Assembly: GCF_042242105.1 (NCBI RefSeq) | Contig: NC_092031.1 | Coordinates: 6,204,462 to 6,268,461 of the forward strand | Origin: Pempheris klunzingeri | Taxonomy: Eukaryota > Chordata > Actinopteri > Acropomatiformes > Pempheridae | DNA length: 64,000 bases | Direction: 5' to 3' | Shown here: piece after piece, positions 18,926 through 56,800 of the stretch | How positions within the stretch are numbered: the stretch's first letter is position 1 | How the letters are laid out: each line of letters begins with the position of its first letter | Notes under the pieces: model-generated | Database searches by the model: none | What the model was told of the DNA's origin: nothing | Seen by the model: only the letters and a program-made list of their open reading frames with translations | Program-made: the position numbers and the translations under genes

Positions 18926-18960
18926 TCAATTTTTTGATGCCCTGTGTCACTGCAGGGCTG
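18926..18960 (+). pseudogene. Truncated U5 snRNA (3' end only)
   Basis: Only the Sm site AATTTTTTG and the class A hairpin remain, followed by class A 3' flank up to about 19009. The body of U5 is missing; this is the left edge of the array. Confidence 0.85.
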
Positions 18961-19037
18961 TCTGATGTGTTTAAAGTAACTTTCCAAGACAATACTGTCC
19001 TTCGCACAGTGATGACAGAGATGACCTTGAAAGTAGA

Positions 19038-19154
19038 TTACTCTTGATTCTTTTCAAATCGTATAAATCTTTCGCCTTTTACTAAAGCTTTCTGTGGAAA
19101 AGATCAACAAGAGTTGAACTCAATTTTTTGATGCCCTGTGTCACTGCAGGGCTT
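19038..19154 (+). ncRNA. rnu5: U5 snRNA array copy 1 (class A, diverged)
   Basis: Apical stem TATA, with changes AAAGCTTTCTGTGGAAAAGA beside loop I. The upstream 170 bp promoter is missing: class A 3' flank runs straight into the last 25 bp before the gene, so no PSE lies at -55. Probably silent. Confidence 0.8.
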
Positions 19155-19514
19155 TCTGATGTGTTTAAGGTAACTTTCCAAGACAATACTGTCCTTCGCA
19201 CAGTGGAAACGTGTGTAGTTCACTGCACGTCTTTGCGCACAGATCCGTTTGACTCATGCCGCTGCTGTGCAATCTTCCTCCTTTTGTTTATTCTTAATAA
19301 TAATTGCACACATTACTTCTCTGCTGCACTAAAACTTAACAAAAATTAATGTTGTGATCAAAGTATCACAGTGTAAAGTTCACACTTATCAGCTCTGCTA
19401 ACGAGTCTGCATCAGTCTGATGTCCAGTTTAATAAGTGGTGTTAACGGCACACCGGTTGTGAGGTACATGTCCCTGCTGAAGGGATCGGTCTCTGAGATT
19501 GCTTTGAAAGTAGA

Positions 19515-19631
19515 CTACTCTTGATTCTTTTCAAATTGCATAAATCTTTCGCCTTTTACTAAAGATTTCCGTGGAAAGGATCAACAAGAGTTGAACTCAA
19601 TTTTTTGATGCCCTGTGTCACTGCAGGGCTT
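19515..19631 (+). ncRNA. rnu5: U5 snRNA array copy 2 (class A)
   Basis: Promoter P1, 3' box Y. The start reads CTACTCTTG and the apical side AAATTGCATAAATC, both private changes typical of the array edge. Loop I and Sm site intact. Confidence 0.88.
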
Positions 19632-19991
19632 TCTGATGTGTATAAGGTAACTTTCCAAGACAATACTGTCCTCCTCACAGTGGAAACGTGTGTAGTTCAC
19701 TGCACGTCTTTGCGCACAGATCCGTTTGACACATGCCGCTGCTGTGCAATCTTCCTCCTTTTGTTTATTCTTAATAATAATTGCACACATTACTTCTCTG
19801 CTGCACTAAAACTTAACAAAAATTAATGTTGTGATCAAAGTATCACAGTGTAAAGTTCACACTTATCAGCTCTGCTAACGAGTCTGCATCAGTCTGATGT
19901 CCAGTTTAATAAGTGGCATCGAATTCACACCGGTGGTGAGGTACATGTCCCTGCTGAAGGGATCGGCCTCTGAGATTACTTTGAAAGTAGA

Positions 19992-20108
19992 TTACTCTTG
20001 ATTCTTTTCAAATCGTATAAATCTTTCGCCTTTTACTAAAGATTTCTGTGGAAAGGATCAACAAGAGTTGAACTCAATTTTTTGATGCCCTGCTTGAAGT
20101 GGGGCTTT
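19992..20108 (+). ncRNA. rnu5: U5 snRNA array copy 3 (class B)
   Basis: Promoter P2, apical stem TATA. GATTTCTGTGG replaces GATTTCCGTGG. Loop I and Sm site intact. Confidence 0.9.
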
Positions 20109-20504
20109 CTTGTTATGTATAACAAAAATATGTAGACTGTAGCTTATGTCCATATGGTGATTGTGGCATGGTAATGAGTTGATGATCTTTGGTGAGGTTG
20201 ATATTTGTTCTTCTTCACAAGGAGGCAACCATGCCCAGTTCGAAGTTTGTACCATTTCATACGTCAGTGCAACCTGAAATGTGGCATCGTTAGTTATAGA
20301 GTATCAATGATTTGGGTTAGGACAAGATTAAAGTTGTGATCAAAGTATCACAGTGAAACAGTGTAAAGTTCACACTTGTCAACTCTGCTAAAGAGTCCGC
20401 ATGACTTTGATCTCTGCTTCATTAAGTGGCATCGAATTCACACCGGTGGTCAGGTACATGTCCCTGCTGAAGGGATTGGCCTCTGAGATTACCTTGAAAG
20501 TAGA

Positions 20505-20621
20505 TTACTCTTGATTCTTTTCAAATCGTATAAATCTTTCGCCTTTTACTAAAGATTTCCGTGGAAAGGATCAACAAGAGTTGAACGCAATTTTTTGATG
20601 CCCTGTGTCACTGCAGGGCTT
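20505..20621 (+). ncRNA. rnu5: U5 snRNA array copy 4 (class A)
   Basis: Promoter P3 with GATTGGCC, apical stem TATA, GAACGCAATT before the Sm core, 3' box F. The same combination recurs at 26374 and 39531. Confidence 0.92.
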
Positions 20622-20981
20622 TCTGATGTGTTTAAGGTAACTTTCCAAGACAATACTGTCCTTCGCACAGTGGAAACGTGTGTAGTTCACTGCACGTCTT
20701 TGCGCACAGATCCGTTTGACTCATGCCGCTGCTGTGCAATCTTCCTCCTTTTGTTTATTCTTAATAATAATTGCACACATTACTTCTCTGCTGCACTAAA
20801 ACTTAACAAAAATTAATGTTGTGATCAAAGTATCACAGTGTAAAGTTCACACTTATCAGCTCTGCTAACGAGTCTGCATCAGTCTGATGTCCAGTTTAAT
20901 AAGTGGCATCGAATTCACACCGGTGGTGAGGTACATGTCCCTGCTGAAGGGATCGGCCTCTGAGATTACTTTGAAAGTAGA

Positions 20982-21098
20982 TTACTCTTGATTCTTTTCA
21001 AATCGTATAAATCTTTCGCCTTTTACTAAAGATTTCCGTGGAAAGGATCAACAAGAGTTGAACTCAATTTTTTGATGCCCTGCTTGAAGTGGGGCTTT
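20982..21098 (+). ncRNA. rnu5: U5 snRNA array copy 5 (class B)
   Basis: Promoter P2, apical stem TATA, consensus class B body. Confidence 0.92.
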
Positions 21099-21494
21099 CT
21101 TGTTATGTATAACAAAAATATGTAGACTGTAGCTTATGTCCATATGGTGATTGTGGCATGGTAATGAGTTGATGATCTTTGGTGAGGTTGATATTTGTTC
21201 TTCTTCACAAGGAGGCAACCATGCCCAGTTCGAAGTTTGTACCATTTCATACGTCAGTGCAACCTGAAATGTGGCATCGTTAGTTATAGAGTATCAATGA
21301 TTTGGGTTAGGACAAGATTAAAGTTGTGATCAAAGTATCACAGTGAAACAGTGTAAAGTTCACACTTGTCAACTCTGCTAAAGAGTCCGCATGACTTTGA
21401 TCTCTGCTTCATTAAGTGGCATCGAATTCACACCGGTGGTCAGGTACATGTCCCTGCTGAAGGGATCGGCCTCTGAGATTACCTTGAAAGTAGA

Positions 21495-21611
21495 TTACTC
21501 TTGATTCTTTTCAAATCGTACAAATCTTTCGCCTTTTACTAAAGATTTCCGTGGAAAGGATCAACAAGAGTTGAACTCAATTTTTTGATGCCCTGTGTCA
21601 CTGCAGGGCTT
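21495..21611 (+). ncRNA. rnu5: U5 snRNA array copy 6 (class A)
   Basis: Promoter P3, apical stem TACA, 3' box F. Confidence 0.92.
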
Positions 21612-21905
21612 TCTGATGTGTTTAAGGTAACTTTCCAAGACAATACTGTCCTTCGCACAGTGGAAACGTGTGTAGTTCACTGCACGTCTTTGCGCACAGA
21701 TCCGTTTGACTCATGCCGCTGCTGTGCAATCTTCCTCCTTTTGTTTATTCTTAATAATAATTGCACACATTACTTCTCTGCTGCACTAAAACTTAACAAA
21801 AATTAATGTTGTGATCAAAGTATCACAGTGTAAAGTTCACACTTATCAGCTCTGCTAACGAGTCTGCATCAGTCTGATGTCCAGTTTAATAAGTGGTGTT
21901 AACGG

Positions 21906-21927
21906 CACACCGGTTGTGAGGTACATG
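21906..21927 (+). promoter_or_regulatory. Representative array PSE (promoter P1)
   Basis: CACACCGGTTGTGAGGTACA sits at -66 to -46 of the next U5 copy, the same place as in canonical gene 1. The block is kept upstream of all array copies except the first, with GTTGTG, GTGGTGAGG or GTGGTCAGG variants. Confidence 0.6.
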
Positions 21928-21971
21928 TCCCTGCTGAAGGGATCGGTCTCTGAGATTGCTTTGAAAGTAGA

Positions 21972-22088
21972 TTACTCTTGATTCTTTTCAAATCGCATAA
22001 ATCTTTCGCCTTTTACTAAAGATTTCCGTGGAAAGGATCAACAAGAGTTGAACGCAATTTTTTGATGCCCTGTGTCACTGCAGGGCTT
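21972..22088 (+). ncRNA. rnu5: U5 snRNA array copy 7 (class A)
   Basis: Promoter P1, apical stem CATA, GAACGCAATT before the Sm core, 3' box F. Confidence 0.92.
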
Positions 22089-22096
22089 TCTGATGT

Positions 22097-22108
22097 GTTT
22101 AAGGTAAC
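22097..22108 (+). terminator. Representative class A 3' box
   Basis: GTTTAAGGTAAC begins about 9 bases after the class A hairpin and fits the start of the snRNA 3' box. Y-type units read GTATAAGGTAAC. Confidence 0.5.
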
Positions 22109-22448
22109 TTTCCAAGACAATACTGTCCTTCGCACAGTGGAAACGTGTGTAGTTCACTGCACGTCTTTGCGCACAGATCCGTTTGACTCATGCCGCTGCT
22201 GTGCAATCTTCCTCCTTTTGTTTATTCTTAATAATAATTGCACACATTACTTCTCTGCTGCACTAAAACTTAACAAAAATTAATGTTGTGATCAAAGTAT
22301 CACAGTGTAAAGTTCACACTTATCAGCTCTGCTAACGAGTCTGCATCAGTCTGATGTCCAGTTTAATAAGTGGCATCGAATTCACACCGGTGGTGAGGTA
22401 CATGTCCCTGCTGAAGGGATCGGCCTCTGAGATTACTTTGAAAGTAGA

Positions 22449-22565
22449 TTACTCTTGATTCTTTTCAAATCGTATAAATCTTTCGCCTTTTACTAAAGAT
22501 TTCCGTGGAAAGGATCAACAAGAGTTGAACTCAATTTTTTGATGCCCTGCTTGAAGTGGGGCTTT
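22449..22565 (+). ncRNA. rnu5: U5 snRNA array copy 8 (class B)
   Basis: Promoter P2, apical stem TATA, consensus class B body. Confidence 0.92.
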
Positions 22566-22574
22566 CTTGTTATG

Positions 22575-22593
22575 TATAACAAAAATATGTAGA
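22575..22593 (+). terminator. Representative class B 3' box
   Basis: TATAACAAAAATATGTAGA begins about 9 bases after the class B hairpin. Its AAAA...AGA end resembles the 3' box; the leading GTTT is missing. Confidence 0.4.
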
Positions 22594-22961
22594 CTGTAGC
22601 TTATGTCCATATGGTGATTGTGGCATGGTAATGAGTTGATGATCTTTGGTGAGGTTGATATTTGTTCTTCTTCACAAGGAGGCAACCATGCCCAGTTCGA
22701 AGTTTGTACCATTTCATACGTCAGTGCAACCTGAAATGTGGCATCGTTAGTTATAGAGTATCAATGATTTGGGTTAGGACAAGATTAAAGTTGTGATCAA
22801 AGTATCACAGTGAAACAGTGTAAAGTTCACACTTGTCAACTCTGCTAAAGAGTCCGCATGACTTTGATCTCTGCTTCATTAAGTGGCATCGAATTCACAC
22901 CGGTGGTCAGGTACATGTCCCTGCTGAAGGGATCGGCCTCTGAGATTACCTTGAAAGTAGA

Positions 22962-23079
22962 TTACTCTTGATTCTTTTTTAAATCGTCCAAATCTTTCGC
23001 CTTTTACTAAAGATTTCCGTGGAAAGGATCAACAAGAGTTGAACTCAATTTTTTGATGCCCTGTGTCACTGCAGGGCTT
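22962..23079 (+). ncRNA. rnu5: U5 snRNA array copy 9 (class A, 1-nt insertion)
   Basis: Promoter P3, apical stem TCCA, 3' box F. TTCTTTTTTAAATCG replaces TTCTTTTCAAATCG, adding one base and losing a stem C. The identical lesion recurs at 33185. Confidence 0.9.
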
Positions 23080-23439
23080 TCTGATGTGTTTAAGGTAACT
23101 TTCCAAGACAATACTGTCCTTCGCACAGTGGAAACGTGTGTAGTTCACTGCACGTCTTTGCGCACAGATCCGTTTGACTCATGCCGCTGCTGTGCAATCT
23201 TCCTCCTTTTGTTTATTCTTAATAATAATTGCACACATTACTTCTCTGCTGCACTAAAACTTAACAAAAATTAATGTTGTGATCAAAGTATCACAGTGTA
23301 AAGTTCACACTTATCAGCTCTGCTAACGAGTCTGCATCAGTCTGATGTCCAGTTTAATAAGTGGTGTTAACGGCACACCGGTTGTGAGGTACATGTCCCT
23401 GCTGAAGGGATCGGTCTCTGAGATTGCTTTGAAAGTAGA

Positions 23440-23556
23440 TTACTCTTGATTCTTTTCAAATCGCATAAATCTTTCGCCTTTTACTAAAGATTTCCGTGGA
23501 AAGGATCAACAAGAGTTAAACTCAATTTTTTGATGCCCTGTGTCACTGCAGGGCTT
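23440..23556 (+). ncRNA. rnu5: U5 snRNA array copy 10 (class A)
   Basis: Promoter P1, apical stem CATA, GAGTTAAACTC before the Sm site, 3' box Y. Confidence 0.92.
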
Positions 23557-23916
23557 TCTGATGTGTATAAGGTAACTTTCCAAGACAATACTGTCCTCCT
23601 CACAGTGGAAACGTGTGTAGTTCACTGCACGTCTTTGCGCACAGATCCGTTTGACTCATGCCGCTGCTGTGCAATCTTCCTCCTTTTGTTTATTCTTAAT
23701 AATAATTGCACATATTACTTCTCTGCTGCACTAAAACTTAACAAAAATTAATGTTGTGATCAAAGTATCACAGTGTAAAGTTCACACTTATCAGCTCTGC
23801 TAACGAGTCTGCATCAGTCTGATGTCCAGTTTAATAAGTGGTGTTAACGGCACACCGGTTGTGAGGTACATGTCCCTGCTGAAGGGATCGGTCTCTGAGA
23901 TTGCTTTGAAAGTAGA

Positions 23917-24033
23917 TTACTCTTGATTCTTTTCAAATCGCATAAATCTTTCGCCTTTTACTAAAGATTTCCGTGGAAAGGATCAACAAGAGTTGAACTC
24001 AATTTTTTGATGCCCTGTGTCACTGCAGGGCTT
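23917..24033 (+). ncRNA. rnu5: U5 snRNA array copy 11 (class A)
   Basis: Promoter P1, apical stem CATA, GAGTTGAACTC, 3' box F. Confidence 0.92.
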
Positions 24034-24393
24034 TCTGATGTGTTTAAGGTAACTTTCCAAGACAATACTGTCCTTCGCACAGTGGAAACGTGTGTAGTTC
24101 ACTGCACGTCTTTGCGCACAGATCCGTTTGACTCATGCCGCTGCTGTGCAATCTTCCTCCTTTTGTTTATTCTTAATAATAATTGCACACATTACTTCTC
24201 TGCTGCACTAAAACTTAACAAAAATTAATGTTGTGATCAAAGTATCACAGTGTAAAGTTCACACTTATCAGCTCTGCTAACGAGTCTGCATCAGTCTGAT
24301 GTCCAGTTTAATAAGTGGCATCGAATTCACACCGGTGGTGAGGTACATGTCCCTGCTGAAGGGATCGGCCTCTGAGATTACTTTGAAAGTAGA

Positions 24394-24510
24394 TTACTCT
24401 TGATTCTTTTCAAATCGTATAAATCTTTCGCCTTTTACTAAAGATTTCCGTGGAAAGGATCAACAAGAGTTGAACTCAATTTTTTGATGCCCTGCTTGAA
24501 GTGGGGCTTT
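24394..24510 (+). ncRNA. rnu5: U5 snRNA array copy 12 (class B)
   Basis: Promoter P2, apical stem TATA, consensus class B body. Confidence 0.92.
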
Positions 24511-24906
24511 CTTGTTATGTATAACAAAAATATGTAGACTGTAGCTTATGTCCATATGGTGATTGTGGCATGGTAATGAGTTGATGATCTTTGGTGAGGT
24601 TGATATTTGTTCTTCTTCACAAGGAGGCAACCATGCCCAGTTCGAAGTTTGTACCATTTCATACGTCAGTGCAACCTGAAATGTGGCATCGTTAGTTATA
24701 GAGTATCAATGATTTGGGTTAGGACAAGATTAAAGTTGTGATCAAAGTATCACAGTGAAACAGTGTAAAGTTCACACTTGTCAACTCTGCTAAAGAGTCC
24801 GCATGACTTTGATCTCTGCTTCATTAAGTGGCATCGAATTCACACCGGTGGTCAGGTACATGTCCCTGCTGAAGGGATCGGCCTCTGAGATTACCTTGAA
24901 AGTAGA

Positions 24907-25023
24907 TTACTCTTGATTCTTTTCAAATCGTCCAAATCTTTCGCCTTTTACTAAAGATTTCCGTGGAAAGGATCAACAAGAGTTGAACTCAATTTTTTGA
25001 TGCCCTGTGTCACTGCAGGGCTT
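24907..25023 (+). ncRNA. rnu5: U5 snRNA array copy 13 (class A)
   Basis: Promoter P3, apical stem TCCA, 3' box F. Confidence 0.92.
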
Positions 25024-25383
25024 TCTGATGTGTTTAAGGTAACTTTCCAAGACAATACTGTCCTTCGCACAGTGGAAACGTGTGTAGTTCACTGCACGTC
25101 TTTGCGCACAGATCCGTTTGACTCATGCCGCTGCTGTGCAATCTTCCTCCTTTTGTTTATTCTTAATAATAATTGCACACATTACTTCTCTGCTGCACTA
25201 AAACTTAACAAAAATTAATGTTGTGATCAAAGTATCACAGTGTAAAGTTCACACTTATCAGCTCTGCTAACGAGTCTGCATCAGTCTGATGTCCAGTTTA
25301 ATAAGTGGTGTTAACGGCACACCGGTTGTGAGGTACATGTCCCTGCTGAAGGGATCGGTCTCTGAGATTGCTTTGAAAGTAGA

Positions 25384-25500
25384 TTACTCTTGATTCTTTT
25401 CAAATCGCATAAATCTTTCGCCTTTTACTAAAGATTTCCGTGGAAAGGATCAACAAGAGTTAAACTCAATTTTTTGATGCCCTGTGTCACTGCAGGGCTT
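25384..25500 (+). ncRNA. rnu5: U5 snRNA array copy 14 (class A)
   Basis: Promoter P1, apical stem CATA, GAGTTAAACTC. The 3' box is a private Y form, GTATAAAGTAAC, shared only with 35607. Confidence 0.92.
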
Positions 25501-25860
25501 TCTGATGTGTATAAAGTAACTTTCCAAGACAATACTGTCCTCCTCACAGTGGAAACGTGTGTAGTTCACTGCACGTCTTTGCGCACAGATCCGTTTGACT
25601 CATGCCGCTGCTGTGCAATCTTCCTCCTTTTGTTTATTCTTAATAATAATTGCACATATTACTTCTCTGCTGCACTAAAACTTAACAAAAATTAATGTTG
25701 TGATCAAAGTATCACAGTGTAAAGTTCACACTTATCAGCTCTGCTAACGAGTCTGCATCAGTCTGATGTCCAGTTTAATAAGTGGCATCGAATTCACACC
25801 GGTGGTGAGGTACATGTTCCTGCTGAAGGGATCGGCCTCTGAGATTACTTTGAAAGTAGA

Positions 25861-25977
25861 TTACTCTTGATTCTTTTCAAATCGTATAAATCTTTCGCCT
25901 TTTACTAAAGATTTCCGTGGAAAGGATCAACAAGAGTTGAACTCAATTTTTTGATGCCCTGCTTGAAGTGGGGCTTT
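25861..25977 (+). ncRNA. rnu5: U5 snRNA array copy 15 (class B)
   Basis: Promoter P2 with ATGTTCCTG in place of ATGTCCCTG beside the PSE; apical stem TATA. Confidence 0.92.
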
Positions 25978-26373
25978 CTTGTTATGTATAACAAAAATAT
26001 GTAGACTGTAGCTTATGTCCATATGGTGATTGTGGCATGGTAATGAGTTGATGATCTTTGGTGAGGTTGATATTTGTTCTTCTTCACAAGGAGGCAACCA
26101 TGCCCAGTTCGAAGTTTGTACCATTTCATACGTCAGTGCAACCTGAAATGTGGCATCGTTAGTTATAGAGTATCAATGATTTGGGTTAGGACAAGATTAA
26201 AGTTGTGATCAAAGTATCACAGTGAAACAGTGTAAAGTTCACACTTGTCAACTCTGCTAAAGAGTCCGCATGACTTTGATCTCTGCTTCATTAAGTGGCA
26301 TCGAATTCACACCGGTGGTCAGGTACATGTCCCTGCTGAAGGGATTGGCCTCTGAGATTACCTTGAAAGTAGA

Positions 26374-26490
26374 TTACTCTTGATTCTTTTCAAATCGTAT
26401 AAATCTTTCGCCTTTTACTAAAGATTTCCGTGGAAAGGATCAACAAGAGTTGAACGCAATTTTTTGATGCCCTGTGTCACTGCAGGGCTT
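26374..26490 (+). ncRNA. rnu5: U5 snRNA array copy 16 (class A)
   Basis: Promoter P3 with GATTGGCC, apical stem TATA, GAACGCAATT, 3' box F; matches 20505. Confidence 0.92.
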
Positions 26491-26850
26491 TCTGATGTGT
26501 TTAAGGTAACTTTCCAAGACAATACTGTCCTTCGCACAGTGGAAACGTGTGTAGTTCACTGCACGTCTTTGCGCACAGATCCGTTTGACTCATGCCGCTG
26601 CTGTGCAATCTTCCTCCTTTTGTTTATTCTTAATAATAATTGCACACATTACTTCTCTGCTGCACTAAAACTTAACAAAAATTAATGTTGTGATCAAAGT
26701 ATCACAGTGTAAAGTTCACACTTATCAGCTCTGCTAACGAGTCTGCATCAGTCTGATGTCCAGTTTAATAAGTGGCATCGAATTCACACCGGTGGTGAGG
26801 TACATGTCCCTGCTGAAGGGATCGGCCTCTGAGATTACTTTGAAAGTAGA

Positions 26851-26967
26851 TTACTCTTGATTCTTTTCAAATCGTATAAATCTTTCGCCTTTTACTAAAG
26901 ATTTCCGTGGAAAGGATCAACAAGAGTTGAACTCAATTTTTTGATGCCCTGCTTGAAGTGGGGCTTT
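26851..26967 (+). ncRNA. rnu5: U5 snRNA array copy 17 (class B)
   Basis: Promoter P2, apical stem TATA, consensus class B body. Confidence 0.92.
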
Positions 26968-27363
26968 CTTGTTATGTATAACAAAAATATGTAGACTGTA
27001 GCTTATGTCCATATGGTGATTGTGGCATGGTAATGAGTTGATGATCTTTGGTGAGGTTGATATTTGTTCTTCTTCACAAGGAGGCAACCATGCCCAGTTC
27101 GAAGTTTGTACCATTTCATACGTCAGTGCAACCTGAAATGTGGCATCGTTAGTTATAGAGTATCAATGATTTGGGTTAGGACAAGATTAAAGTTGTGATC
27201 AAAGTATCACAGTGAAACAGTGTAAAGTTCACACTTGTCAACTCTGCTAAAGAGTCCGCATGACTTTGATCTCTGCTTCATTAAGTGGCATCGAATTCAC
27301 ACCGGTGGTCAGGTACATGTCCCTGCTGAAGGGATCGGCCTCTGAGATTACCTTGAAAGTAGA

Positions 27364-27480
27364 TTACTCTTGATTCTTTTCAAATCGTACAAATCTTTCG
27401 CCTTTTACTAAAGATTTCCGTGGAAAGGATCAACAAGAGTTGAACTCAATTTTTTGATGCCCTGTGTCACTGCAGGGCTT
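27364..27480 (+). ncRNA. rnu5: U5 snRNA array copy 18 (class A)
   Basis: Promoter P3, apical stem TACA, 3' box F. Confidence 0.92.
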
Positions 27481-27840
27481 TCTGATGTGTTTAAGGTAAC
27501 TTTCCAAGACAATACTGTCCTTCGCACAGTGGAAACGTGTGTAGTTCACTGCACGTCTTTGCGCACAGATCCGTTTGACTCATGCCGCTGCTGTGCAATC
27601 TTCCTCCTTTTGTTTATTCTTAATAATAATTGCACACATTACTTCTCTGCTGCACTAAAACTTAACAAAAATTAATGTTGTGATCAAAGTATCACAGTGT
27701 AAAGTTCACACTTATCAGCTCTGCTAACGAGTCTGCATCAGTCTGATGTCCAGTTTAATAAGTGGTGTTAACGGCACACCGGTTGTGAGGTACATGTCCC
27801 TGCTGAAGGGATCGGTCTCTGAGATTGCTTTGAAAGTAGA

Positions 27841-27957
27841 TTACTCTTGATTCTTTTCAAATCGCATAAATCTTTCGCCTTTTACTAAAGATTTCCGTGG
27901 AAAGGATCAACAAGAGTTGAACGCAATTTTTTGATGCCCTGTGTCACTGCAGGGCTT
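27841..27957 (+). ncRNA. rnu5: U5 snRNA array copy 19 (class A, short flank)
   Basis: Promoter P1, apical stem CATA, GAACGCAATT, 3' box F. Its 3' flank has an 11-bp deletion at about 28060 (CATGCAATC), so this unit is 466 bp long. Confidence 0.92.
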
Positions 27958-28306
27958 TCTGATGTGTTTAAGGTAACTTTCCAAGACAATACTGTCCTTC
28001 GCACAGTGGAAACGTGTGTAGTTCACTGCACGTCTTTGCGCACAGATCCGTTTGACTCATGCAATCTTCCTCCTTTTGTTTATTCTTAATAATAATTGCA
28101 CACATTACTTCTCTGCTGCACTAAAACTTAACAAAAATTAATGTTGTGATCAAAGTATCACAGTGTAAAGTTCACACTTATCAGCTCTGCTAACGAGTCT
28201 GCATCAGTCTGATGTCCAGTTTAATAAGTGGTGTTAACGGCACACCGGTTGTGAGGTACATGTCCCTGCTGAAGGGATCGGTCTCTGAGATTGCTTTGAA
28301 AGTAGA

Positions 28307-33184: not shown

Positions 33185-33302
33185 TTACTCTTGATTCTTT
33201 TTTAAATCGTCCAAATCTTTCGCCTTTTACTAAAGATTTCCGTGGAAAGGATCAACAAGAGTTGAACTCAATTTTTTGATGCCCTGTGTCACTGCAGGGC
33301 TT
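33185..33302 (+). ncRNA. rnu5: U5 snRNA array copy 30 (class A, 1-nt insertion)
   Basis: Promoter P3, apical stem TCCA, 3' box F. Same TTCTTTTTTAAATCG lesion as at 22962, exactly 10,223 bp away. Confidence 0.9.
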
Positions 33303-47306: not shown

Positions 47307-47423
47307 TTACTCTTGATTCTATTCAAATCGTATAAATCTTTCGCCTTTTACTAAAGATTTCCGTGGAAAGGATCAACAAGAGTTGAACTCAATTTTTTGA
47401 TGCCCTGTGTCACTGCAGGGCTT
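47307..47423 (+). ncRNA. rnu5: U5 snRNA array copy 59 (class A, stem change)
   Basis: Promoter P3 with GATTGGCC, apical stem TATA, 3' box F. GATTCTATTCAAATCG (T to A) breaks one pair of the inner stem opposite GGAAAGG. Confidence 0.9.
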
Positions 47424-47783
47424 TCTGATGTGTTTAAGGTAACTTTCCAAGACAATACTGTCCTTCGCACAGTGGAAACGTGTGTAGTTCACTGCACGTC
47501 TTTGCGCACAGATCCGTTTGACTCATGCCGCTGCTGTGCAATCTTCCTCCTTTTGTTTATTCTTAATAATAATTGCACACATTACTTCTCTGCTGCACTA
47601 AAACTTAACAAAAATTAATGTTGTGATCAAAGTATCACAGTGTAAAGTTCACACTTATCAGCTCTGCTAACGAGTCTGCATCAGTCTGATGTCCAGTTTA
47701 ATAAGTGGTGTTAACGGCACACCGGTTGTGAGGTACATGTCCCTGCTGAAGGGATCGGTCTCTGAGATTGCTTTGAAAGTAGA

Positions 47784-47900
47784 TTACTCTTGATTCTTTT
47801 CAAATCGCATAAATCTTTCGCCTTTTACTAAAGATTTCCGTGGAAAGGATCAACAAGAGTTGAACTCAATTTTTTGATGCCCTGTGTCACTGCAGGGCTT
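47784..47900 (+). ncRNA. rnu5: U5 snRNA array copy 60 (class A)
   Basis: Promoter P1, apical stem CATA. GAGTTGAACTC here goes with 3' box Y. Confidence 0.92.
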
Positions 47901-48260
47901 TCTGATGTGTATAAGGTAACTTTCCAAGACAATACTGTCCTCCTCACAGTGGAAACGTGTGTAGTTCACTGCACGTCTTTGCGCACAGATCCGTTTGACT
48001 CATGCCGCTGCTGTGCAATCTTCCTCCTTTTGTTTATTCTTAATAATAATTGCACATATTACTTCTCTGCTGCACTAAAACTTAACAAAAATTAATGTTG
48101 TGATCAAAGTATCACAGTGTAAAGTTCACACTTATCAGCTCTGCTAACGAGTCTGCATCAGTCTGATGTCCAGTTTAATAAGTGGCATCGAATTCACACC
48201 GGTGGTGAGGTACATGTTCCTGCTGAAGGGATCGGCCTCTGAGATTACTTTGAAAGTAGA

Positions 48261-48377
48261 TTACTCTTGATTCTTTTCAAATCGTATAAATCTTTCGCCT
48301 TTTACTAAAGATTTCCGTGGAAAGGATCAACAAGAGTTGAACTCAATTTTTTGATGCCCTGTGTCACTGCAGGGCTT
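48261..48377 (+). ncRNA. rnu5: U5 snRNA array copy 61 (class A with class-B-type promoter)
   Basis: Promoter P2 with ATGTTCCTG, normally found before B units, here drives a class A gene. Apical stem TATA, 3' box F, flank GCACATATT. Confidence 0.92.
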
Positions 48378-48737
48378 TCTGATGTGTTTAAGGTAACTTT
48401 CCAAGACAATACTGTCCTTCGCACAGTGGAAACGTGTGTAGTTCACTGCACGTCTTTGCGCACAGATCCGTTTGACTCATGCCGCTGCTGTGCAATCTTC
48501 CTCCTTTTGTTTATTCTTAATAATAATTGCACATATTACTTCTCTGCTGCACTAAAACTTAACAAAAATTAATGTTGTGATCAAAGTATCACAGTGTAAA
48601 GTTCACACTTATCAGCTCTGCTAACGAGTCTGCATCAGTCTGATGTCCAGTTTAATAAGTGGTGTTAACGGCACACCGGTTGTGAGGTACATGTCCCTGC
48701 TGAAGGGATCGGTCTCTGAGATTGCTTTGAAAGTAGA

Positions 48738-48854
48738 TTACTCTTGATTCTTTTCAAATCGCATAAATCTTTCGCCTTTTACTAAAGATTTCCGTGGAAA
48801 GGATCAACAAGAGTTGAACTCAATTTTTTGATGCCCTGTGTCACTGCAGGGCTT
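48738..48854 (+). ncRNA. rnu5: U5 snRNA array copy 62 (class A)
   Basis: Promoter P1, apical stem CATA, GAGTTGAACTC, 3' box Y. Confidence 0.92.
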
Positions 48855-49214
48855 TCTGATGTGTATAAGGTAACTTTCCAAGACAATACTGTCCTCCTCA
48901 CAGTGGAAACGTGTGTAGTTCACTGCACGTCTTTGCGCACAGATCCGTTTGACTCATGCCGCTGCTGTGCAATCTTCCTCCTTTTGTTTATTCTTAATAA
49001 TAATTGCACATATTACTTCTCTGCTGCACTAAAACTTAACAAAAATTAATGTTGTGATCAAAGTATCACAGTGTAAAGTTCACACTTATCAGCTCTGCTA
49101 ACGAGTCTGCATCAGTCTGATGTCCAGTTTAATAAGTGGCATCGAATTCACACCGGTGGTGAGGTACATGTTCCTGCTGAAGGGATCGGCCTCTGAGATT
49201 ACTTTGAAAGTAGA

Positions 49215-49331
49215 TTACTCTTGATTCTTTTCAAATCGTATAAATCTTTCGCCTTTTACTAAAGATTTCCGTGGAAAGGATCAACAAGAGTTGAACTCAA
49301 TTTTTTGATGCCCTGTTTCACTGCAGGGCTT
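49215..49331 (+). ncRNA. rnu5: U5 snRNA array copy 63 (class A)
   Basis: Promoter P2 with ATGTTCCTG, apical stem TATA, 3' box F. The hairpin loop reads TTTCACTG in place of TGTCACTG. Confidence 0.92.
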
Positions 49332-49691
49332 TCTGATGTGTTTAAGGTAACTTTCCAAGACAATACTGTCCTTCGCACAGTGGAAACGTGTGTAGTTCAC
49401 TGCACGTCTTTGCGCACAGATCCGTTTGACTCATGCCGCTGCTGTGCAATCTTCCTCCTTTTGTTTATTCTTAATAATAATTGCACACATTACTTCTCTG
49501 CTGCACTAAAACTTAACAAAAATTAATGTTGTGATCAAAGTATCACAGTGTAAAGTTCACACTTATCAGCTCTGCTAACGAGTCTGCATCAGTCTGATGT
49601 CCAGTTTAATAAGTGGCATCGAATTCACACCGGTGGTGAGGTACATGTCCCTGCTGAAGGGATCGGTCTCTGAGATTGCTTTGAAAGTAGA

Positions 49692-49808
49692 TTACTCTTG
49701 ATTCTTTTCAAATCGCATAAATCTTTCGCCTTTTACTAAAGATTTCCGTGGAAAGGATCAACAAGAGTTGAACTCAATTTTTTGATGCCCTGCTTGAAGT
49801 GGGGCTTT
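49692..49808 (+). ncRNA. rnu5: U5 snRNA array copy 64 (class B)
   Basis: A hybrid promoter: P2 at the PSE, but P1-type GGTCTCTGAGATTGCTTTG and apical stem CATA. It is followed by another class B unit. Confidence 0.92.
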
Positions 49809-50204
49809 CTTGTTATGTATAACAAAAATATGTAGACTGTAGCTTATGTCCATATGGTGATTGTGGCATGGTAATGAGTTGATGATCTTTGGTGAGGTTG
49901 ATATTTGTTCTTCTTCACAAGGAGGCAACCATGCCCAGTTCGAAGTTTGTACCATTTCATACGTCAGTGCAACCTGAAATGTGGCATCGTTAGTTATAGA
50001 GTATCAATGATTTGGGTTAGGACAAGATTAAAGTTGTGATCAAAGTATCACAGTGAAACAGTGTAAAGTTCACACTTGTCAACTCTGCTAAAGAGTCCGC
50101 ATGACTTTGATCTCTGCTTCATTAAGTGGCATCGAATTTACACCGGTGGTCAGGTACATGTCCCTGCTGAAGGGATTGGCCTCTGAGATTACCTTGAAAG
50201 TAGA

Positions 50205-50321
50205 TTACTCTTGATTCTTTTCAAATCGTACAAATCTTTCGCCTTTTACTAAAGATTTCCGTGGAAAGGATCAACAAGAGTTGAACTCAATTTTTTGATG
50301 CCCTGCTTGAAGTGGGGCTTT
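50205..50321 (+). ncRNA. rnu5: U5 snRNA array copy 65 (class B after B)
   Basis: Promoter P3 with GAATTTACACC before the PSE and GATTGGCC; apical stem TACA. It is the only B unit that follows a B unit. Confidence 0.92.
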
Positions 50322-50717
50322 CTTGTTATGTATAACAAAAATATGTAGACTGTAGCTTATGTCCATATGGTGATTGTGGCATGGTAATGAGTTGATGATC
50401 TTTGGTGAGGTTGATATTTGTTCTTCTTCACAAGGAGGCAACCATGCCCAGTTCGAAGTTTGTACCATTTCATACGTCAGTGCAGCCTGAAATGTGGCAT
50501 CGTTAGTTATAGAGTATCAATGATTTGGGTTAGGACAAGATTAAAGTTGTGATCAAAGTATCACAGTGAAACAGTGTAAAGTTCACGCTTGTCAACTCTG
50601 CTAAAGAGTCCGCATGACTTTGATCTCTGCTTCATTAAGTGGCATCGAATTCACACCGGTGGTCAGGTACATGTCCCTGCTGAAGGGATTGGCCTCTGAG
50701 ATGACCTTGAAAGTAGA

Positions 50718-50834
50718 TTACTCTTGATTCTTTTCAAATCGTACAAATCTTTCGCCTTTTACTAAAGATTTCCGTGGAAAGGATCAACAAGAGTTGAACT
50801 CAATTTTTTGATGCCCTGTGTCACTGCAGGGCTT
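50718..50834 (+). ncRNA. rnu5: U5 snRNA array copy 66 (class A')
   Basis: Promoter P3, apical stem TACA. The 3' box region reads GTTTAAGGGAAAC, with one inserted base relative to other A units. Confidence 0.9.
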
Positions 50835-51195
50835 TCTGATGTGTTTAAGGGAAACTTTCCAAGACAATACTGTCCTTCGCACAGTGGACAGGTGTGTAGT
50901 TCACTGCACGTCTTTGCGCACAGATCCGTTTGACTCATGCCGCTGCTGTGCAATCTTCCTCCTTTTGTTTATTCTTAATAATAATTGCACACATTACTTC
51001 TCTGCTGCACTAAAACTTAACAAAAATTAATGTTGTGATCAAAGTATCACAGTGTAAAGTTCACACTTACCAGCTCTGCTAACGAGTCTGCATCAGTCTG
51101 ATGTCCAGTTTAATAAGTGGTGTCAACGGCACACCGGTGGTGAGGTACATGTCCCTGCTGAAGGGATCGGCCTCTGAGATTACTTTGAAAGTAGA

Positions 51196-51312
51196 TTACT
51201 CTTGATTCTTTTCAAATCGTATAACTCTTTCGCCTTTTACTAAAGATTTCCGTGGAAAGGATCAACAAGAGTTGAACTCAATTTTTTGATGCCCTGCTTG
51301 AAGTGGGGCTTT
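51196..51312 (+). ncRNA. rnu5: U5 snRNA array copy 67 (class B, apical stem change)
   Basis: Promoter P4. GTATAACTCTTTCGCC replaces GTATAAATCTTTCGCC, which breaks a pair of the stem that carries loop I. Confidence 0.85.
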
Positions 51313-51708
51313 CTTGTTATGTATAACAAAAATATGTAGACTGTAGCTTATGTCCATATGGTGATTGTGGCATGGTAATGAGTTGATGATCTTTGGTGAG
51401 GTTGATATTTGTTCTTCTTCACAAGGAGGCAACCATGCCCAGTTCGAAGTTTGTACCATTTCATACGTCAGTGCAACCTGAAACGTGGCATCGTTAGTTA
51501 TAGAGTATCAATGATTTGGGTTAGGACAAGATTAAAGTTGTGATCAAAGTATCACAGTGAAACAGTGTAAAGTTCACACTTGTCAACTCTGCTAAAGAGT
51601 CCGCATGACTTTGATCTCTGCTTCATTAAGTGGCATCGAATTCACACCGGTGGTCAGGTACATGTCCCTGCTGAAGGGATTGGCCTCTGAGATTACCTTG
51701 AAAGTAGA

Positions 51709-51825
51709 TTACTCTTGATTCTTTTCAAATCGTACAAATCTTTCGCCTTTTACTAAAGATTTCCGTGGAAAGGATCAACAAGAGTTGAACTCAATTTTTT
51801 GATGCCCTGTGTCACTGCAGGGCTT
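51709..51825 (+). ncRNA. rnu5: U5 snRNA array copy 68 (class A')
   Basis: Promoter P3 with GATTGGCC, apical stem TACA, 3' box GTTTAAGGGAAAC. Confidence 0.9.
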
Positions 51826-52186
51826 TCTGATGTGTTTAAGGGAAACTTTCCAAGACAATACTGTCCTTCGCACAGTGGACACGTGTGTAGTTCACTGCAC
51901 GTCTTTGCGCACAGATCTGTTTGACTCATGCCGCTGCTGTGCAATCTTCCTCCTTTTGTTTATTCTTAATAATAATTGCACACATTACTTCTCTGCTGCA
52001 CTAAAACTTAACAAAAATTAATGTTGTGATCAAAGTATCACAGTGTAAAGTTCACACTTACCAGCTCTGCTAACGAGTCTGCATCAGTCTGATGTCCAGT
52101 TTAATAAGTGGTGTCAACGGCACACCGGTGGTGAGGTACATGTCCCTGCTGAAGGGATCGGCCTCTGAGATTACTTTGAAAGTAGA

Positions 52187-52303
52187 TTACTCTTGATTCT
52201 TTTCAAATCGTATAAATCTTTCGCCTTTTACTAAAGATTTCCGTGGAAAGGATCAACAAGAGTTGAACTCAATTTTTTGATGCCCCGCTTGAAGTGGGGC
52301 TTT
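52187..52303 (+). ncRNA. rnu5: U5 snRNA array copy 69 (class B, strengthened hairpin)
   Basis: Promoter P4, apical stem TATA. The hairpin reads GCCCCGC/GTGGGGC, so a U-G pair has become C-G. Confidence 0.92.
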
Positions 52304-52699
52304 CTTGTTATGTATAACAAAAATATGTAGACTGTAGCTTATGTCCATATGGTGATTGTGGCATGGTAATGAGTTGATGATCTTTGGTGAGGTTGATATT
52401 TGTTCTTCTTCACAAGGAGGCAACCATGCCCAGTTCGAAGTTTGTACCATTTCATACGTCAGTGCAGCCTGAAATGTGGCATCGTTAGTTATAGAGTATC
52501 AATGATTTGGGTTAGGACAAGATTAAAGTTGTGATCAAAGTATCACAGTGAAACAGTGTAAAGTTCACACTTGTCAACTCTGCTAAAGAGTCCGCATGAC
52601 TTTGATCTCTGCTTCATTAAGTGGCATCGAATTCACACCGGTGGTCAGGTACATGTCCCTGCTGAAGGGATCGGCCTCTGAGATTACCTTGAAAGTAGA

Positions 52700-52816
52700 T
52701 TACTCTTGATTCTTTTCAAATCGTACAAATCTTTCGCCTTTTACTAAAGATTTCCGTGGAAAGGATCAACAAGAGTTGAACTCAATTTTTTGATGCCCTG
52801 TGTCACTGCAGGGCTT
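52700..52816 (+). ncRNA. rnu5: U5 snRNA array copy 70 (class A)
   Basis: Promoter P3, apical stem TACA, 3' box F. The flank has GTGGACACG and CTGCGCAAT, marks of the right-hand domain. Confidence 0.92.
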
Positions 52817-53176
52817 TCTGATGTGTTTAAGGTAACTTTCCAAGACAATACTGTCCTTCGCACAGTGGACACGTGTGTAGTTCACTGCACGTCTTTGCGC
52901 ACAGATCCGTTTGACACATGCCGCTGCTGCGCAATCTTCCTCCTTTTGTTTATTCTTAATAATAATTGCACACATTACTTCTCTGCTGCACTAAAACTTA
53001 ACATAAATTAATGTTGTGATCAAAGTATCACAGTGTAAAGTTCACACTTATCAGCTCTGCTAACGAGTCTGCATCAGTCTGATGTCCAGTTTAATAAGTG
53101 GTGTCAACGGCACACCGGTGGTGAGGTACATGTCCCTGCTGAAGGGATCGGCCTCTGAGATTACTTTGAAAGTAGA

Positions 53177-53293
53177 TTACTCTTGATTCTTTTCAAATCG
53201 TATAAATCTTTCGCCTTTTACTAAAGATTTCCGTGGAAAGGATCAACAAGAGTTGAACTCAATTTTTTGATGCCCTGCTTGAAGTGGGGCTTT
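53177..53293 (+). ncRNA. rnu5: U5 snRNA array copy 71 (class B)
   Basis: Promoter P4, apical stem TATA, consensus class B body. Confidence 0.92.
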
Positions 53294-53689
53294 CTTGTTA
53301 TGTATAACAAAAATATGTAGACTGTAGCTTATGTCCATATGGTGATTGTGGCATGGTAATGAGTTGATGATCTTTGGTGAGGTTGATATTTGTTCTTCTT
53401 CACAAGGAGGCAACCATGCCCAGTTCGAAGTTTGTACCATTTCATACGTCAGTGCAACCTGAAATGTGGCATCGTTAGTTATAGAGTATCAATGATTTGG
53501 GTTAGGACAAGATTAAAGTTGTGATCAAAGTATCACAGTGAAACAGTGTAAAGTTCACACTTGTCAACTCTGCTAAAGAGTCCGCATGACTTTGATCTCT
53601 GCTTCATTAAGTGGCATCGAATTCACACCGGTGGTCAGGTACATGTCCCTGCTGAAGGGATTGGCCTCTGAGATTACCTTGAAAGTAGA

Positions 53690-53806
53690 TTACTCTTGAT
53701 TCTTTTCAAATCGTACAAATCTTTCGCCTTTTACTAAAGATTTCCGTGGAAAGGATCAACAAGAGTTGAACTCAATTTTTTGATGCCCTGTGTCACTGCA
53801 GGGCTT
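53690..53806 (+). ncRNA. rnu5: U5 snRNA array copy 72 (class A)
   Basis: Promoter P3 with GATTGGCC, apical stem TACA, 3' box F, flank GTGGACACG. Confidence 0.92.
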
Positions 53807-54166
53807 TCTGATGTGTTTAAGGTAACTTTCCAAGACAATACTGTCCTTCGCACAGTGGACACGTGTGTAGTTCACTGCACGTCTTTGCGCACAGATCCGT
53901 TTGACACATGCCGCTGCTGCGCAATCTTCCTCCTTTTGTTTATTCTTAATAATAATTGCACACATTACTTCTCTGCTGCACTAAAACTTAACAAAAATTA
54001 ATGTTGTGATCAAAGTATCACAGTGTAAAGTTCACACTTACCAGCTCTGCTAACGAGTCTGCATCAGTCTGATGTCCAGTTTAATAAGTGGTGTCAACGG
54101 CACACCGGTGGTGAGGTACATGTCCCTGCTGAAGGGATCGGCCTCTGAGATTACTTTGAAAGTAGA

Positions 54167-54283
54167 TTACTCTTGATTCTTTTCAAATCGTATAAATCTT
54201 TCGCCTTTTACTAAAGATTTCCGTGGAAAGGATCAACAAGAGTTGAACTCAATTTTTTGATGCCCTGCTTGAAGTGGGGCTTT
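54167..54283 (+). ncRNA. rnu5: U5 snRNA array copy 73 (class B)
   Basis: Promoter P4, apical stem TATA, consensus class B body. Confidence 0.92.
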
Positions 54284-54679
54284 CTTGTTATGTATAACAA
54301 AAATATGTAGACTGTAGCTTATGTCCATATGGTGATTGTGGCATGGTAATGAGTTGATGATCTTTGGTGAGGTTGATATTTGTTCTTCTTCACAAGGAGG
54401 CAACCATGCCCAGTTCGAAGTTTGTACCATTTCATACGTCAGTGCAACCTGAAATGTGGCATCGTTAGTTATAGAGTATCAATGATTTGGGTTAGGACAA
54501 GATTAAAGTTGTGATCAAAGTATCACAGTGAAACAGTGTAAAGTTCACACTTGTCAACTCTGCTAAAGAGTCCGCATGACTTTGATCTCTGCTTCATTAA
54601 GTGGCATCGAATTCACACCGGTGGTCAGGTACATGTCCCTGCTGAAGGGATTGGCCTCTGAGATGACCTTGAAAGTAGA

Positions 54680-54796
54680 TTACTCTTGATTCTTTTCAAA
54701 TCGTACAAATCTTTCGCCTTTTACTAAAGATTTCCGTGGAAAGGATCAACAAGAGTTGAACTCAATTTTTTGATGCCGTGTGTCACTGCAGGGCTT
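54680..54796 (+). ncRNA. rnu5: U5 snRNA array copy 74 (class A', hairpin change)
   Basis: Promoter P3, apical stem TACA, 3' box GTTTAAGGGAAAC. The hairpin arm GCCGTG (C to G) no longer pairs fully with CAGGGC. Confidence 0.87.
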
Positions 54797-55157
54797 TCTG
54801 ATGTGTTTAAGGGAAACTTTCCAAGACAATACTGTCCTTCGCACAGTGGACATGTGTGTAGTTCACTGCACGTCTTTGCGCACAGATCCGTTTGACTCAT
54901 GCCGCTGCTGTGCAATCTTCCTCCTTTTGTTTATTCTTAATAATAATTGCACACATTACTTCTCTGCTGCACTAAAACTTAACAAAAATTAATGTTGTGA
55001 TCAAAGTATCACAGTGTAAAGTTCACACTTACCAGCTCTGCTAACGAGTCTGCATCAGTCTGATGTCCAGTTTAATAAGTGGCATCGAATTCACACCGGT
55101 GGTGAGGTACATGTCCCTGCTGAAGGGATCGGCCTCTGAGATTACTTTGAAAGTAGA

Positions 55158-55274
55158 TTACTCTTGATTCTTTTCAAATCGTATAAATCTTTCGCCTTTT
55201 ATTAAAGATTTCCGTGGAAAGGATCAACAAGAGTTGAACTCAATTTTTTGATGCCCTGCTTGAAGTGGGGCTTT
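55158..55274 (+). ncRNA. rnu5: U5 snRNA array copy 75 (class B, loop I mutated)
   Basis: Promoter P2, apical stem TATA. CGCCTTTTATTAAAG replaces CGCCTTTTACTAAAG, a change inside the invariant loop I that contacts exon ends. This is the only loop I change I found, so the copy is probably non-functional. Confidence 0.8.
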
Positions 55275-55670
55275 CTTGTTATGTATAACAAAAATATGTA
55301 GACTGTAGCTTATGTCCATATGGTGATTGTGGCATGGTAATGAGTTGATGATCTTTGGTGAGGTTGATATTTGTTCTTCTTCACAAGGAGGCAACCATGC
55401 CCAGTTCGAAGTTTGTACCATTTCATACGTCAGTGCAACCTGAAATGTGGCATCGTTAGTTATAGAGTATCAATGATTTGGGTTAGGACAAGATTAAAGT
55501 TGTGATCAAAGTATCACAGTGAAACAGTGTAAAGTTCACACTTGTCAACTCTGCTAAAGAGTCCGCATGACTTTGATCTCTGCTTCATTAAGTGGCATCG
55601 AATTCACACCGGTGGTCAGGTACATGTCCCTGCTGAAGGGATTGGCCTCTGAGATGACCTTGAAAGTAGA

Positions 55671-55787
55671 TTACTCTTGATTCTTTTCAAATCGTACAAA
55701 TCTTTCGCCTTTTACTAAAGATTTCCGTGGAAAGGATCAACAAGAGTTGAACTCAATTTTTTGATGCCCTGTGTCACTGCAGGGCTT
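55671..55787 (+). ncRNA. rnu5: U5 snRNA array copy 76 (class A')
   Basis: Promoter P3 with GATTGGCC, apical stem TACA, 3' box GTTTAAGGGAAAC. Confidence 0.9.
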
Positions 55788-56148
55788 TCTGATGTGTTTA
55801 AGGGAAACTTTCCAAGACAATACTGTCCTTCGCACAGTGGACACGTGTGTAGTTCACTGCACGTCTTTGCGCACAGATCCGTTTGACTCATGCCGCTGCT
55901 GTGCAATCTTCCTCCTTTTGTTTATTCTTAATAATAATTGCACACATTACTTCTCTGCTGCACTAAAACTTAACAAAAATTAATGTTGTGATCAAAGTAT
56001 CACAGTGTAAAGTTCACACTTACCAGCTCTGCTAACGAGTCTGCATCAGTCTGATGTCCAGTTTAATAAGTGGCATCGAATTCACACCGGTGGTGAGGTA
56101 CATGTCCCTGCTGAAGGGATCGGTCTCAGAGATTACCTTGAAAGTAGA

Positions 56149-56265
56149 TTACTCTTGATTCTTTTCAAATCGTACAAATCTTTCGCCTTTTACTAAAGAT
56201 TTCCGTGGAAAGGATCAACAAGAGTTGAACTAAATTTTTTGATGCCCTGTTTCACTGCAGGGCTT
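56149..56265 (+). ncRNA. rnu5: U5 snRNA array copy 77, last copy (class A)
   Basis: Promoter P2 with GGTCTCAGAGATTACC, apical stem TACA, TGAACTAAATTTTTTG around the Sm site, hairpin loop TTTCACTG, 3' box F. The flank stops at TTAA 56405-56408 where a mobile element begins. Confidence 0.88.
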
Positions 56266-56404
56266 TCTGATGTGTTTAAGGTAACTTTCCAAGACAATAC
56301 TGTCCTTCGCACAGTGGACACGTGCGTAGTTCACTGCACGTCTTTGCGCACAGATCCATTTGACACATGCCGCTGCTGTGCAATCTTCCTTCTTTTTTTT
56401 ATTC

Positions 56405-56800
56405 TTAACCCTTTGATGCACAACATATGCACACCCCTTCTAATACACAACATGGGTCCAAAGTGACCCACATTCATTTTCTATGTGATTTCATGCTGGG
56501 TGAGTGTCTCTTTGCTGTATCTTTTGAAATCAATTAATTTTATGATTGAATATTCCAAGTATTCTTTTAATATCTTGTTTTTGAGTAATACAGGTCATTA
56601 TTATCAATTTTCCTTTCTTATTTTATGAACAAAAATAAGTTTTTGTATTTTTACATCAAGTTTACGCACATGGTTCAAAAAGGACCCGTTTATCTAAGTA
56701 TGATTTTAAATCAAATGACTTCATACTATAACAATAATTTGCCTTAAATAATCACTTTAGCAGTGGTTTGGGCCAAGCAATCATGCATTTAACGTTTTAA
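56405..56800 (+). mobile_element. piggyBac-like element end (TTAA target, CCCTTTGATGCA terminus)
   Basis: The class A flank reads ATTCTTAATAATAATT in intact units. Here it changes to ATTCTTAACCCTTTGATGCA exactly at TTAA, the piggyBac target. The terminus CCCTTTGATGCACAAC is piggyBac-like. I see no second terminus and no resumed array flank to the right, so the far end is lost or diverged. Confidence 0.6.

What the first reader, a model, noticed from the sequence alone, without database searches (positions are those of the whole stretch)
18926..56408. A 37-kb tandem array of 77 U5 spliceosomal snRNA genes
Seen: 77 head-to-tail units, each with a ~117-nt U5 (loop I CGCCTTTTACT, Sm site AATTTTTTG, 3' hairpin), plus one truncated copy. 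Known: vertebrate genomes usually carry a handful of dispersed U5 genes; tandem snRNA arrays are best known for U1 and U2. A U5-only array of this size and uniformity is unusual and I know of no description of it. Inference: it may supply bulk U5 for oocytes or embryos, or be selfish amplification of a small RNA gene.
Basis: partly seen in the sequence, partly recalled or inferred. Interest (0 to 1): 0.92.

Follow-up and report, generated by a model that had tools for sequence, protein, structure and literature searches.

The report
Tandem array of 77 U5 genes
A 37-kb stretch of what looks like a fish genome holds 77 head-to-tail copies of the gene for U5, a small RNA of the splicing machinery; most copies look intact, but they lack an enhancer motif that two lone U5 genes next door carry, so they may be switched on by a different programme.

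Summary
Unit spacing mixes 477 and 513 bp, with two interleaved 3'-end types, A (24) and B (53). Of 76 units 38 sequences are distinct; 19 of the 25 single-occurrence units lie at the two ends, as unequal exchange would leave them. Loop I is intact in 76 of 77 and the Sm site in 77 of 77. The array differs from its neighbours by a paired C-G to U-A change in a U5 stem. Shared variants mostly avoid stems, loop I and Sm site. New here: each solitary gene has a ZNF143/SPH-like motif 213-222 bp upstream; the array's homology to the 17147 gene stops short of it, and the array has none. Best reading: a concerted-evolving U5 array with PSE-like promoters but without the neighbours' enhancer motif, plausibly an oocyte/embryo supply. 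Expression is untested. Fish U5 in tandem with U2 is known; my capped searches listed no U5-only array.

The parts
18926..56408 (+). U5 tandem array: one truncated copy and 77 full U5 genes
17147..17261 (+). solitary U5 gene, closest relative of the array in the window
   Evidence: 98.0 bits; aligns with an array unit from -184 to +138
17949..18062 (+). second solitary U5 gene, with a U-A pair at 10-67 where the others have A-U
   Evidence: 96.7 bits
16932..16949 (+). ZNF143/SPH-like motif (1 mismatch) at -215 of the 17147 gene
17725..17742 (+). ZNF143/SPH-like motif (3 mismatches) at -224 of the 17949 gene
17081..17102 (+). putative PSE of the 17147 gene (-66 to -45)
   Evidence: position and conservation only
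18926..19020 (+). truncated first unit, fused to about -18 of the next U5, so that this copy lacks the putative PSE (right border approximate)
19038..19153 (+). first full U5 copy, without the putative PSE; two broken stem pairs, lowest score
   Evidence: 82.8 bits
20982..21494 (+). example of a type A unit (513 bp)
21495..21971 (+). example of a type B unit (477 bp)
20916..20937 (+). putative PSE of one array copy (example; pattern present for 75 of 77 copies)
22962..23078 (+). U5 copy with a 1-base insertion in stem 1, identical to the copy at 33185
   Evidence: 87.5 bits
55158..55272 (+). the one array copy with a changed loop I

Best explanation
A genuine U5-only tandem gene array. SHOWN: 77 U5 copies with about 180 bp of upstream sequence related to the solitary gene at 17147, including a conserved PSE-like block; the relatedness stops short of the ZNF143/SPH-like motif that both solitary genes carry, and no such motif is found in the array; two interleaved U5 types differ in 3' hairpin and 3' flank. 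INFERRED: a 17147-like ancestor was amplified without its enhancer, and the copies are kept alike by unequal exchange or conversion over multi-unit blocks. INFERRED: they are transcribed by RNA polymerase II from the PSE and most give assembly-competent U5; lacking the enhancer motif, the array answers to a different programme from its neighbours, with copy number replacing enhancer strength. The most likely use is bulk U5 for oocyte and early embryo, with the solitary genes serving somatic cells.
For: RNA identity: 77 copies at 82.8-100.9 bits; loop I 76 of 77, Sm site 77 of 77. Constraint on the RNA: pair 15-62 is C-G in both solitary genes and U-A in 6 of 6 array copies tabulated, and by column counts in 74 of 75; pair 10-67 is U-A in 17949 and A-U in the other seven copies tabulated; all stem-1 pairs hold in 72 of 75 array copies tested. 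Of six columns whose variant occurs in two or more of 75 copies, six lie outside stems, loop I and Sm site (31 of 97 columns; hypergeometric P 7e-4); 6 of 7 (P 0.004) when the two insertion copies are counted. The copy without a PSE-like block (19038) breaks two pairs, more than any other tested. Promoter: against one array unit (20982), the 17147 gene differs at 1 of 49 sites in -66 to -18 and at 27 of 135 in the rest of -184 to -1 (8 of the 27 are one 8-base gap; borders chosen after seeing the alignment). Enhancer: the core CCCANNATGC occurs twice in 64 kb on both strands, at -213 and -222 of the two solitary genes, and 0 times in the array; no 18-base site with up to 3 mismatches in the array. 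Human RNU5 genes had POU2F1 and ZNF143 peaks (PMC3499247, passages); [quoted passage not shown] Exchange: 25 of 76 units occur once, 19 of them at indices 0-2 and 56-75; identical units recur most at lags 4 (10 of 72) and 21 (9 of 55) among 18 lags tried. Developmental U5 isoform bias exists in fly and mouse (PMC4291461, passages).
Against: No expression data. Within the array the U5 region (pi 0.0187) is not less diverse than the distal spacers (0.0012 after A copies, 0.0198 after B copies), so uniformity alone shows homogenisation, not selection. Two copies (22962, 33185) share a stem-1 insertion, so a probably damaged form was duplicated. One copy has a loop I change (55158) and two besides 19038 a broken pair (47307, 51196). 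Copies are related, so the P values are only a guide. Absence of a motif match is not absence of an enhancer: the two spacer types are in effect two observations and few motifs were tried. The solitary genes show no octamer within 300 bp upstream apart from one 1-mismatch match at -285 of 17949, so they differ from the array by the ZNF143-like motif, not by the octamer. znf143 RNA is itself inherited maternally in zebrafish (PMC3282657, passages), so lack of its site does not by itself point to oocytes. Oocyte use rests on analogy.
Confidence: 0.55

Rival explanations
1. Mostly silent satellite: a U5 unit without an enhancer was amplified by recombination and is carried along, with few or no copies expressed; the solitary genes do the work.
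For: U5 part as diverse as the spacers; ZNF143-like motif missing; a probably damaged copy duplicated (22962, 33185); a 177-bp satellite lies next door.
Against: Loop I 76 of 77 and Sm 77 of 77; shared variants mostly avoid constrained positions; compensatory pair at 15-62; PSE-like block conserved for 75 of 77.
Confidence: 0.25
2. Plain dosage array used in all tissues: the main U5 supply of the organism, like tandem U1 or U2 loci, with no developmental speciality.
For: Copies look intact; U5 in tandem with U2 is common in fish and there too no octamer was found at the usual distance (PMC3464664, passages).
Against: The neighbours carry a ZNF143-like motif that the array lacks; human RNU5 genes bind ZNF143 and POU2F1 (PMC3499247, passages).
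Confidence: 0.15
3. Assembly artefact: far fewer units exist and the assembler expanded or duplicated them.
For: Exact repeats up to 4577 bp and a repeated block about 10.2 kb apart; no reads to look at.
Against: 38 distinct units among 76; single-occurrence units concentrated at both ends; both flanks are other sequence.
Confidence: 0.05

Closest known systems
Fish U2-U5 tandem snRNA arrays (Plectorhinchus mediterraneus, PMC3464664; Ancistrus, PMC10532334; passages read)
   Same: U5 genes repeated in tandem in fish, short spacers, PSE just upstream; in PMC3464664 concerted evolution and no octamer in the expected range
   Different: no U2 or other Rfam family found with these units; two 3'-end types interleaved
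Zebrafish chromosome 4 maternal snRNA and 5S genes (PMC11075544, passages read; the preprint it cites, 10.1101/858944, is not held)
   Same: many snRNA gene copies of a sequence type apart from the somatic one
   Different: the passages name U1 and U6 as the maternal spliceosomal genes there; expression of the present array is unknown
Human RNU1 and RNU2 multi-copy loci (recalled, no call)
   Same: repeated snRNA genes kept alike by concerted evolution, each with its own promoter
   Different: another snRNA; those genes carry a DSE (recalled), these show none of the motifs tried
U5 isoforms in Drosophila and mouse (PMC4291461, passages read)
   Same: several U5 sequence forms in one genome, with developmental bias of expression
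   Different: seven distinguishable fly U5 genes at several loci, no large array

Membership tests
U5 spliceosomal snRNA (RF00020) | covariance-model score above the curated cut-off over the full length | tested here: met
   77 of 77 array copies (79 of 79 hits in the window), 82.8-100.9 bits, cut-off 40
U5 spliceosomal snRNA (RF00020) | invariant loop I | tested here: met
   76 of 77 array copies; 55158 differs
U5 spliceosomal snRNA (RF00020) | Sm site and 3' hairpin | tested here: met
   Sm 77 of 77; 3' hairpin predicted in the five copies folded, three of them from the array
U5 spliceosomal snRNA (RF00020) | assembled into the U5 snRNP | not testable with these tools
   needs RNA or protein pull-down data
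Vertebrate pol II snRNA gene promoter | PSE at about -65 to -45 | tested here: inconclusive
   conserved block for 75 of 77 copies and in the 17147 gene; no PSE model scored, SNAPc binding not testable
Vertebrate pol II snRNA gene promoter | DSE with octamer and/or ZNF143 site about 200 bp upstream | tested here: not met
   no match in the array spacers by motif scan; a ZNF143-like motif in both solitary genes
Fish U2-U5 linked array | U2 gene in the repeat unit | tested here: not met
   no U2 at gathering score in the window nor at E up to 10 in three of the units
Concerted-evolving tandem gene array | homogenised interior, divergent edges | tested here: met
   19 of 25 single-occurrence units lie at indices 0-2 and 56-75 of 0-75
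Maternal-type snRNA array | expression restricted to oocyte and early embryo | not testable with these tools
   no expression data

The most novel reading that the evidence does not exclude
The array is a dedicated germline/maternal U5 locus that escaped the standard enhancer: the amplified unit was cut off just short of the ZNF143 site, so 77 enhancer-less genes with two distinct 3' ends make an egg- and embryo-specific U5 pool, while the two enhancer-bearing neighbours make somatic U5.
Probability: 0.3. Interest if true: 0.72.

Novelty: new variant of a known kind. Interest (0 to 1): 0.5.

Why it matters
Developmental bias of U5 isoforms is reported in flies and, less strongly, in mice (PMC4291461, passages). 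A locus where an array type and two solitary genes sit side by side, told apart by a base-pair difference and by presence or absence of an enhancer-like motif, would let one ask from ordinary total-RNA data whether eggs and adult tissues use different U5, and whether copy number can stand in for an enhancer. It is also a clear case of a tandem gene array with two interleaved types.

Tried and rejected
U2, U1, 5S or other RNA genes hidden in the spacers: rejected at the sensitivity used (whole window at gathering scores, three units at E up to 10, where besides three U5 only three weak SmY matches overlapping U5 and two HSR-omega matches at E 9 appeared). Low within-array diversity as proof of purifying selection: rejected, since distal spacers are as uniform or more so. 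Origin of the distal spacers from elsewhere in the window: blastn found nothing beyond the two solitary genes. Relatives in viral contigs and genome contigs by an exact 29-base U5 core: 0 matches in each, unsurprising for collections of viruses and prokaryotes. Other enhancer motifs in one A and one B spacer (Sp1, CACCC, full CRE, Ets, CCAAT, YY1, recalled strings): none; one CRE half-site in the A spacer.

Literature: ten searches were answered; eight looked for tandem or maternal U5. None of the titles and abstracts listed describes a U5-only vertebrate array, but four listings were cut (20 of 24, 20 of 487, 15 of 171 and 15 of 17,643 papers), only open-licence papers are held, and I read passages of seven papers, none whole.
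Full report
Observation. cmscan against Rfam 15 gives 79 matches in the window at gathering score, all U5 (RF00020), all on the + strand, all covering the full model, 82.8 to 100.9 bits against a cut-off of 40. TRF reports the same array as 19018-56408, period 477. A truncated U5 end starts at 18926.

Anatomy. The 76 start-to-start distances are 477 (45), 513 (24), 478 (6) and 466 (1). The 513-bp units carry one 3' hairpin and spacer (type A, 24 copies), the others another (type B, 53 copies). Of 76 complete units 38 are distinct sequences; the longest exact repeat inside the array is 4577 bp. Twenty-five units occur once, 19 of them at indices 0-2 and 56-75 of 0-75; no two neighbouring units are identical (0 of 75); identical units recur most at lags of 4 (10 of 72) and 21 (9 of 55) among the 18 lags tried. 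That is what unequal exchange over multi-unit blocks would leave, and it argues against a trivial assembly artefact, though a wrong copy number cannot be excluded without reads.

The RNA. Loop I is intact in 76 of 77 array copies and the Sm site in 77 of 77. Placing the Rfam structure on eight tabulated copies shows pair 15-62 as C-G in both solitary genes and U-A in the six array copies, and pair 10-67 as U-A in 17949 and A-U in the other seven. In 75 array copies (the two with an insertion, 22962 and 33185, set aside) column 15 is T in 74 and column 62 does not vary; three copies have a broken stem-1 pair: 19038 (two pairs), 47307 and 51196 (one each). Six columns carry a variant in two or more of these copies; all six lie outside stems, loop I and Sm site, which make up 66 of the 97 columns (P 7e-4). 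Leaving out only 19038 and the two insertion copies, 10 of all 13 variable columns lie there (P 5e-4). Counting the insertion copies, which share an inserted base and a C to T change at paired column 18, gives 6 of 7 shared columns (P 0.004). Copies are related, so these P values are a guide only. Against selection: the U5 part (pi 0.0187) is not less diverse than the distal spacers (0.0012 after A, 0.0198 after B copies), although -110 to -1 is more diverse (0.0956).

The promoter. The local alignment of the 17147 gene with array unit 20982 runs from -184 to +138. In it, -66 to -18 differs at 1 of 49 sites, -184 to -67 at 21 of 118 (8 of them one gap), -17 to -1 at 6 of 17 and the RNA at 4 of 97; the borders were chosen after seeing the alignment. 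Within the array, variants shared by two or more of 76 copies are also rarer in -66 to -18 (5 of 49) than in the rest of -110 to -1 (20 of 61; P 0.006). I take CACACCGGTGGTGAGGTACATG at -66 as the putative PSE, by position and conservation only; its pattern is present for 75 of 77 copies, the misses being 19038 and 50205. Copy 19038, whose upstream part is replaced by the truncated unit, has the lowest score and the most broken pairs in the array; that is one case.

The missing enhancer motif. The ZNF143/SPH consensus (recalled) matches with one mismatch at 16932, which is -215 of the 17147 gene, and with three at 17725, which is -224 of the 17949 gene. The whole-window scan with up to two mismatches gave 2 matches where shuffles gave 2.58 on average, and the core CCCANNATGC occurs exactly twice on both strands, at -213 and -222 of the two solitary genes, where about two would be expected by chance in 64 kb (my estimate). 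So it is the position, not the number, that speaks. Ten other sites with two or three mismatches lie outside the array; the array has none. Octamers with up to one mismatch occur in the array only inside two U5 copies (19534, 47321); the solitary genes have none within 300 bp upstream except one 1-mismatch match at -285 of 17949. The alignment with the 17147 gene ends about 13 bases short of its motif. [quoted passage not shown] So the array seems to have been founded by a unit that kept the PSE-like block and lost the enhancer motif. That this changes its use is inference.

Comparison. In fish, U5 in tandem is known: U2-U5 linkage is called the common situation in the fishes so far studied, and no octamer was found in the expected range there either (PMC3464664, passages); Ancistrus shows U2-U5 linkage (PMC10532334, passages), and a coral paper cites U1, U2 and U5 linked with 5S in fish (PMC8167085, passage). 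Here no U2 is seen. Zebrafish chromosome 4 carries maternal U1 and U6 genes (PMC11075544, passages), and U5 isoforms switch in fly and, less strongly, mouse development (PMC4291461, passages). Eight searches listed no U5-only vertebrate array; four of these listings were cut and the library holds open-licence papers only.

Verdict. A real, probably working, U5-only tandem array; a new variant of tandem snRNA arrays. Its use in eggs and embryos is plausible, not shown. Genome-wide counts and the organism's name could not be had because the genome search did not complete (nine attempts).

Noticed in passing
4876-11505: Reading frames of a GT29 sialyltransferase on the + strand (4876-5091, 8224-8409, 11173-11505); the last matches alpha-N-acetylgalactosaminide alpha-2,6-sialyltransferase 2 among solved structures.
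   Followed up: partly
57519-63988: A second tandem array directly downstream: 177-bp satellite, 36.4 copies, 98% matches, ending 12 bases before the window's end.
   Followed up: no
56880-57550: Minus-strand reading frames resembling a Tc1-like transposase (by eye; the family search of this stretch failed and was not repeated) beside the 177-bp satellite, as if the satellite lay inside or next to the element.
   Followed up: no
16976 and, in the array, from 19352 on: TTGTGATCAAAGTATCACAG, an imperfect inverted repeat with a TCF/LEF-like GATCAAAG (recalled motif), occurs 77 times in the window, at about -170 of the 17147 gene and in array spacers (only the first five positions were printed).
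   Followed up: no
22962 and 33185: Two U5 copies with the same 1-base insertion in stem 1 lie 10,223 bp apart in a repeated block, so a probably damaged copy was carried along.
   Followed up: partly
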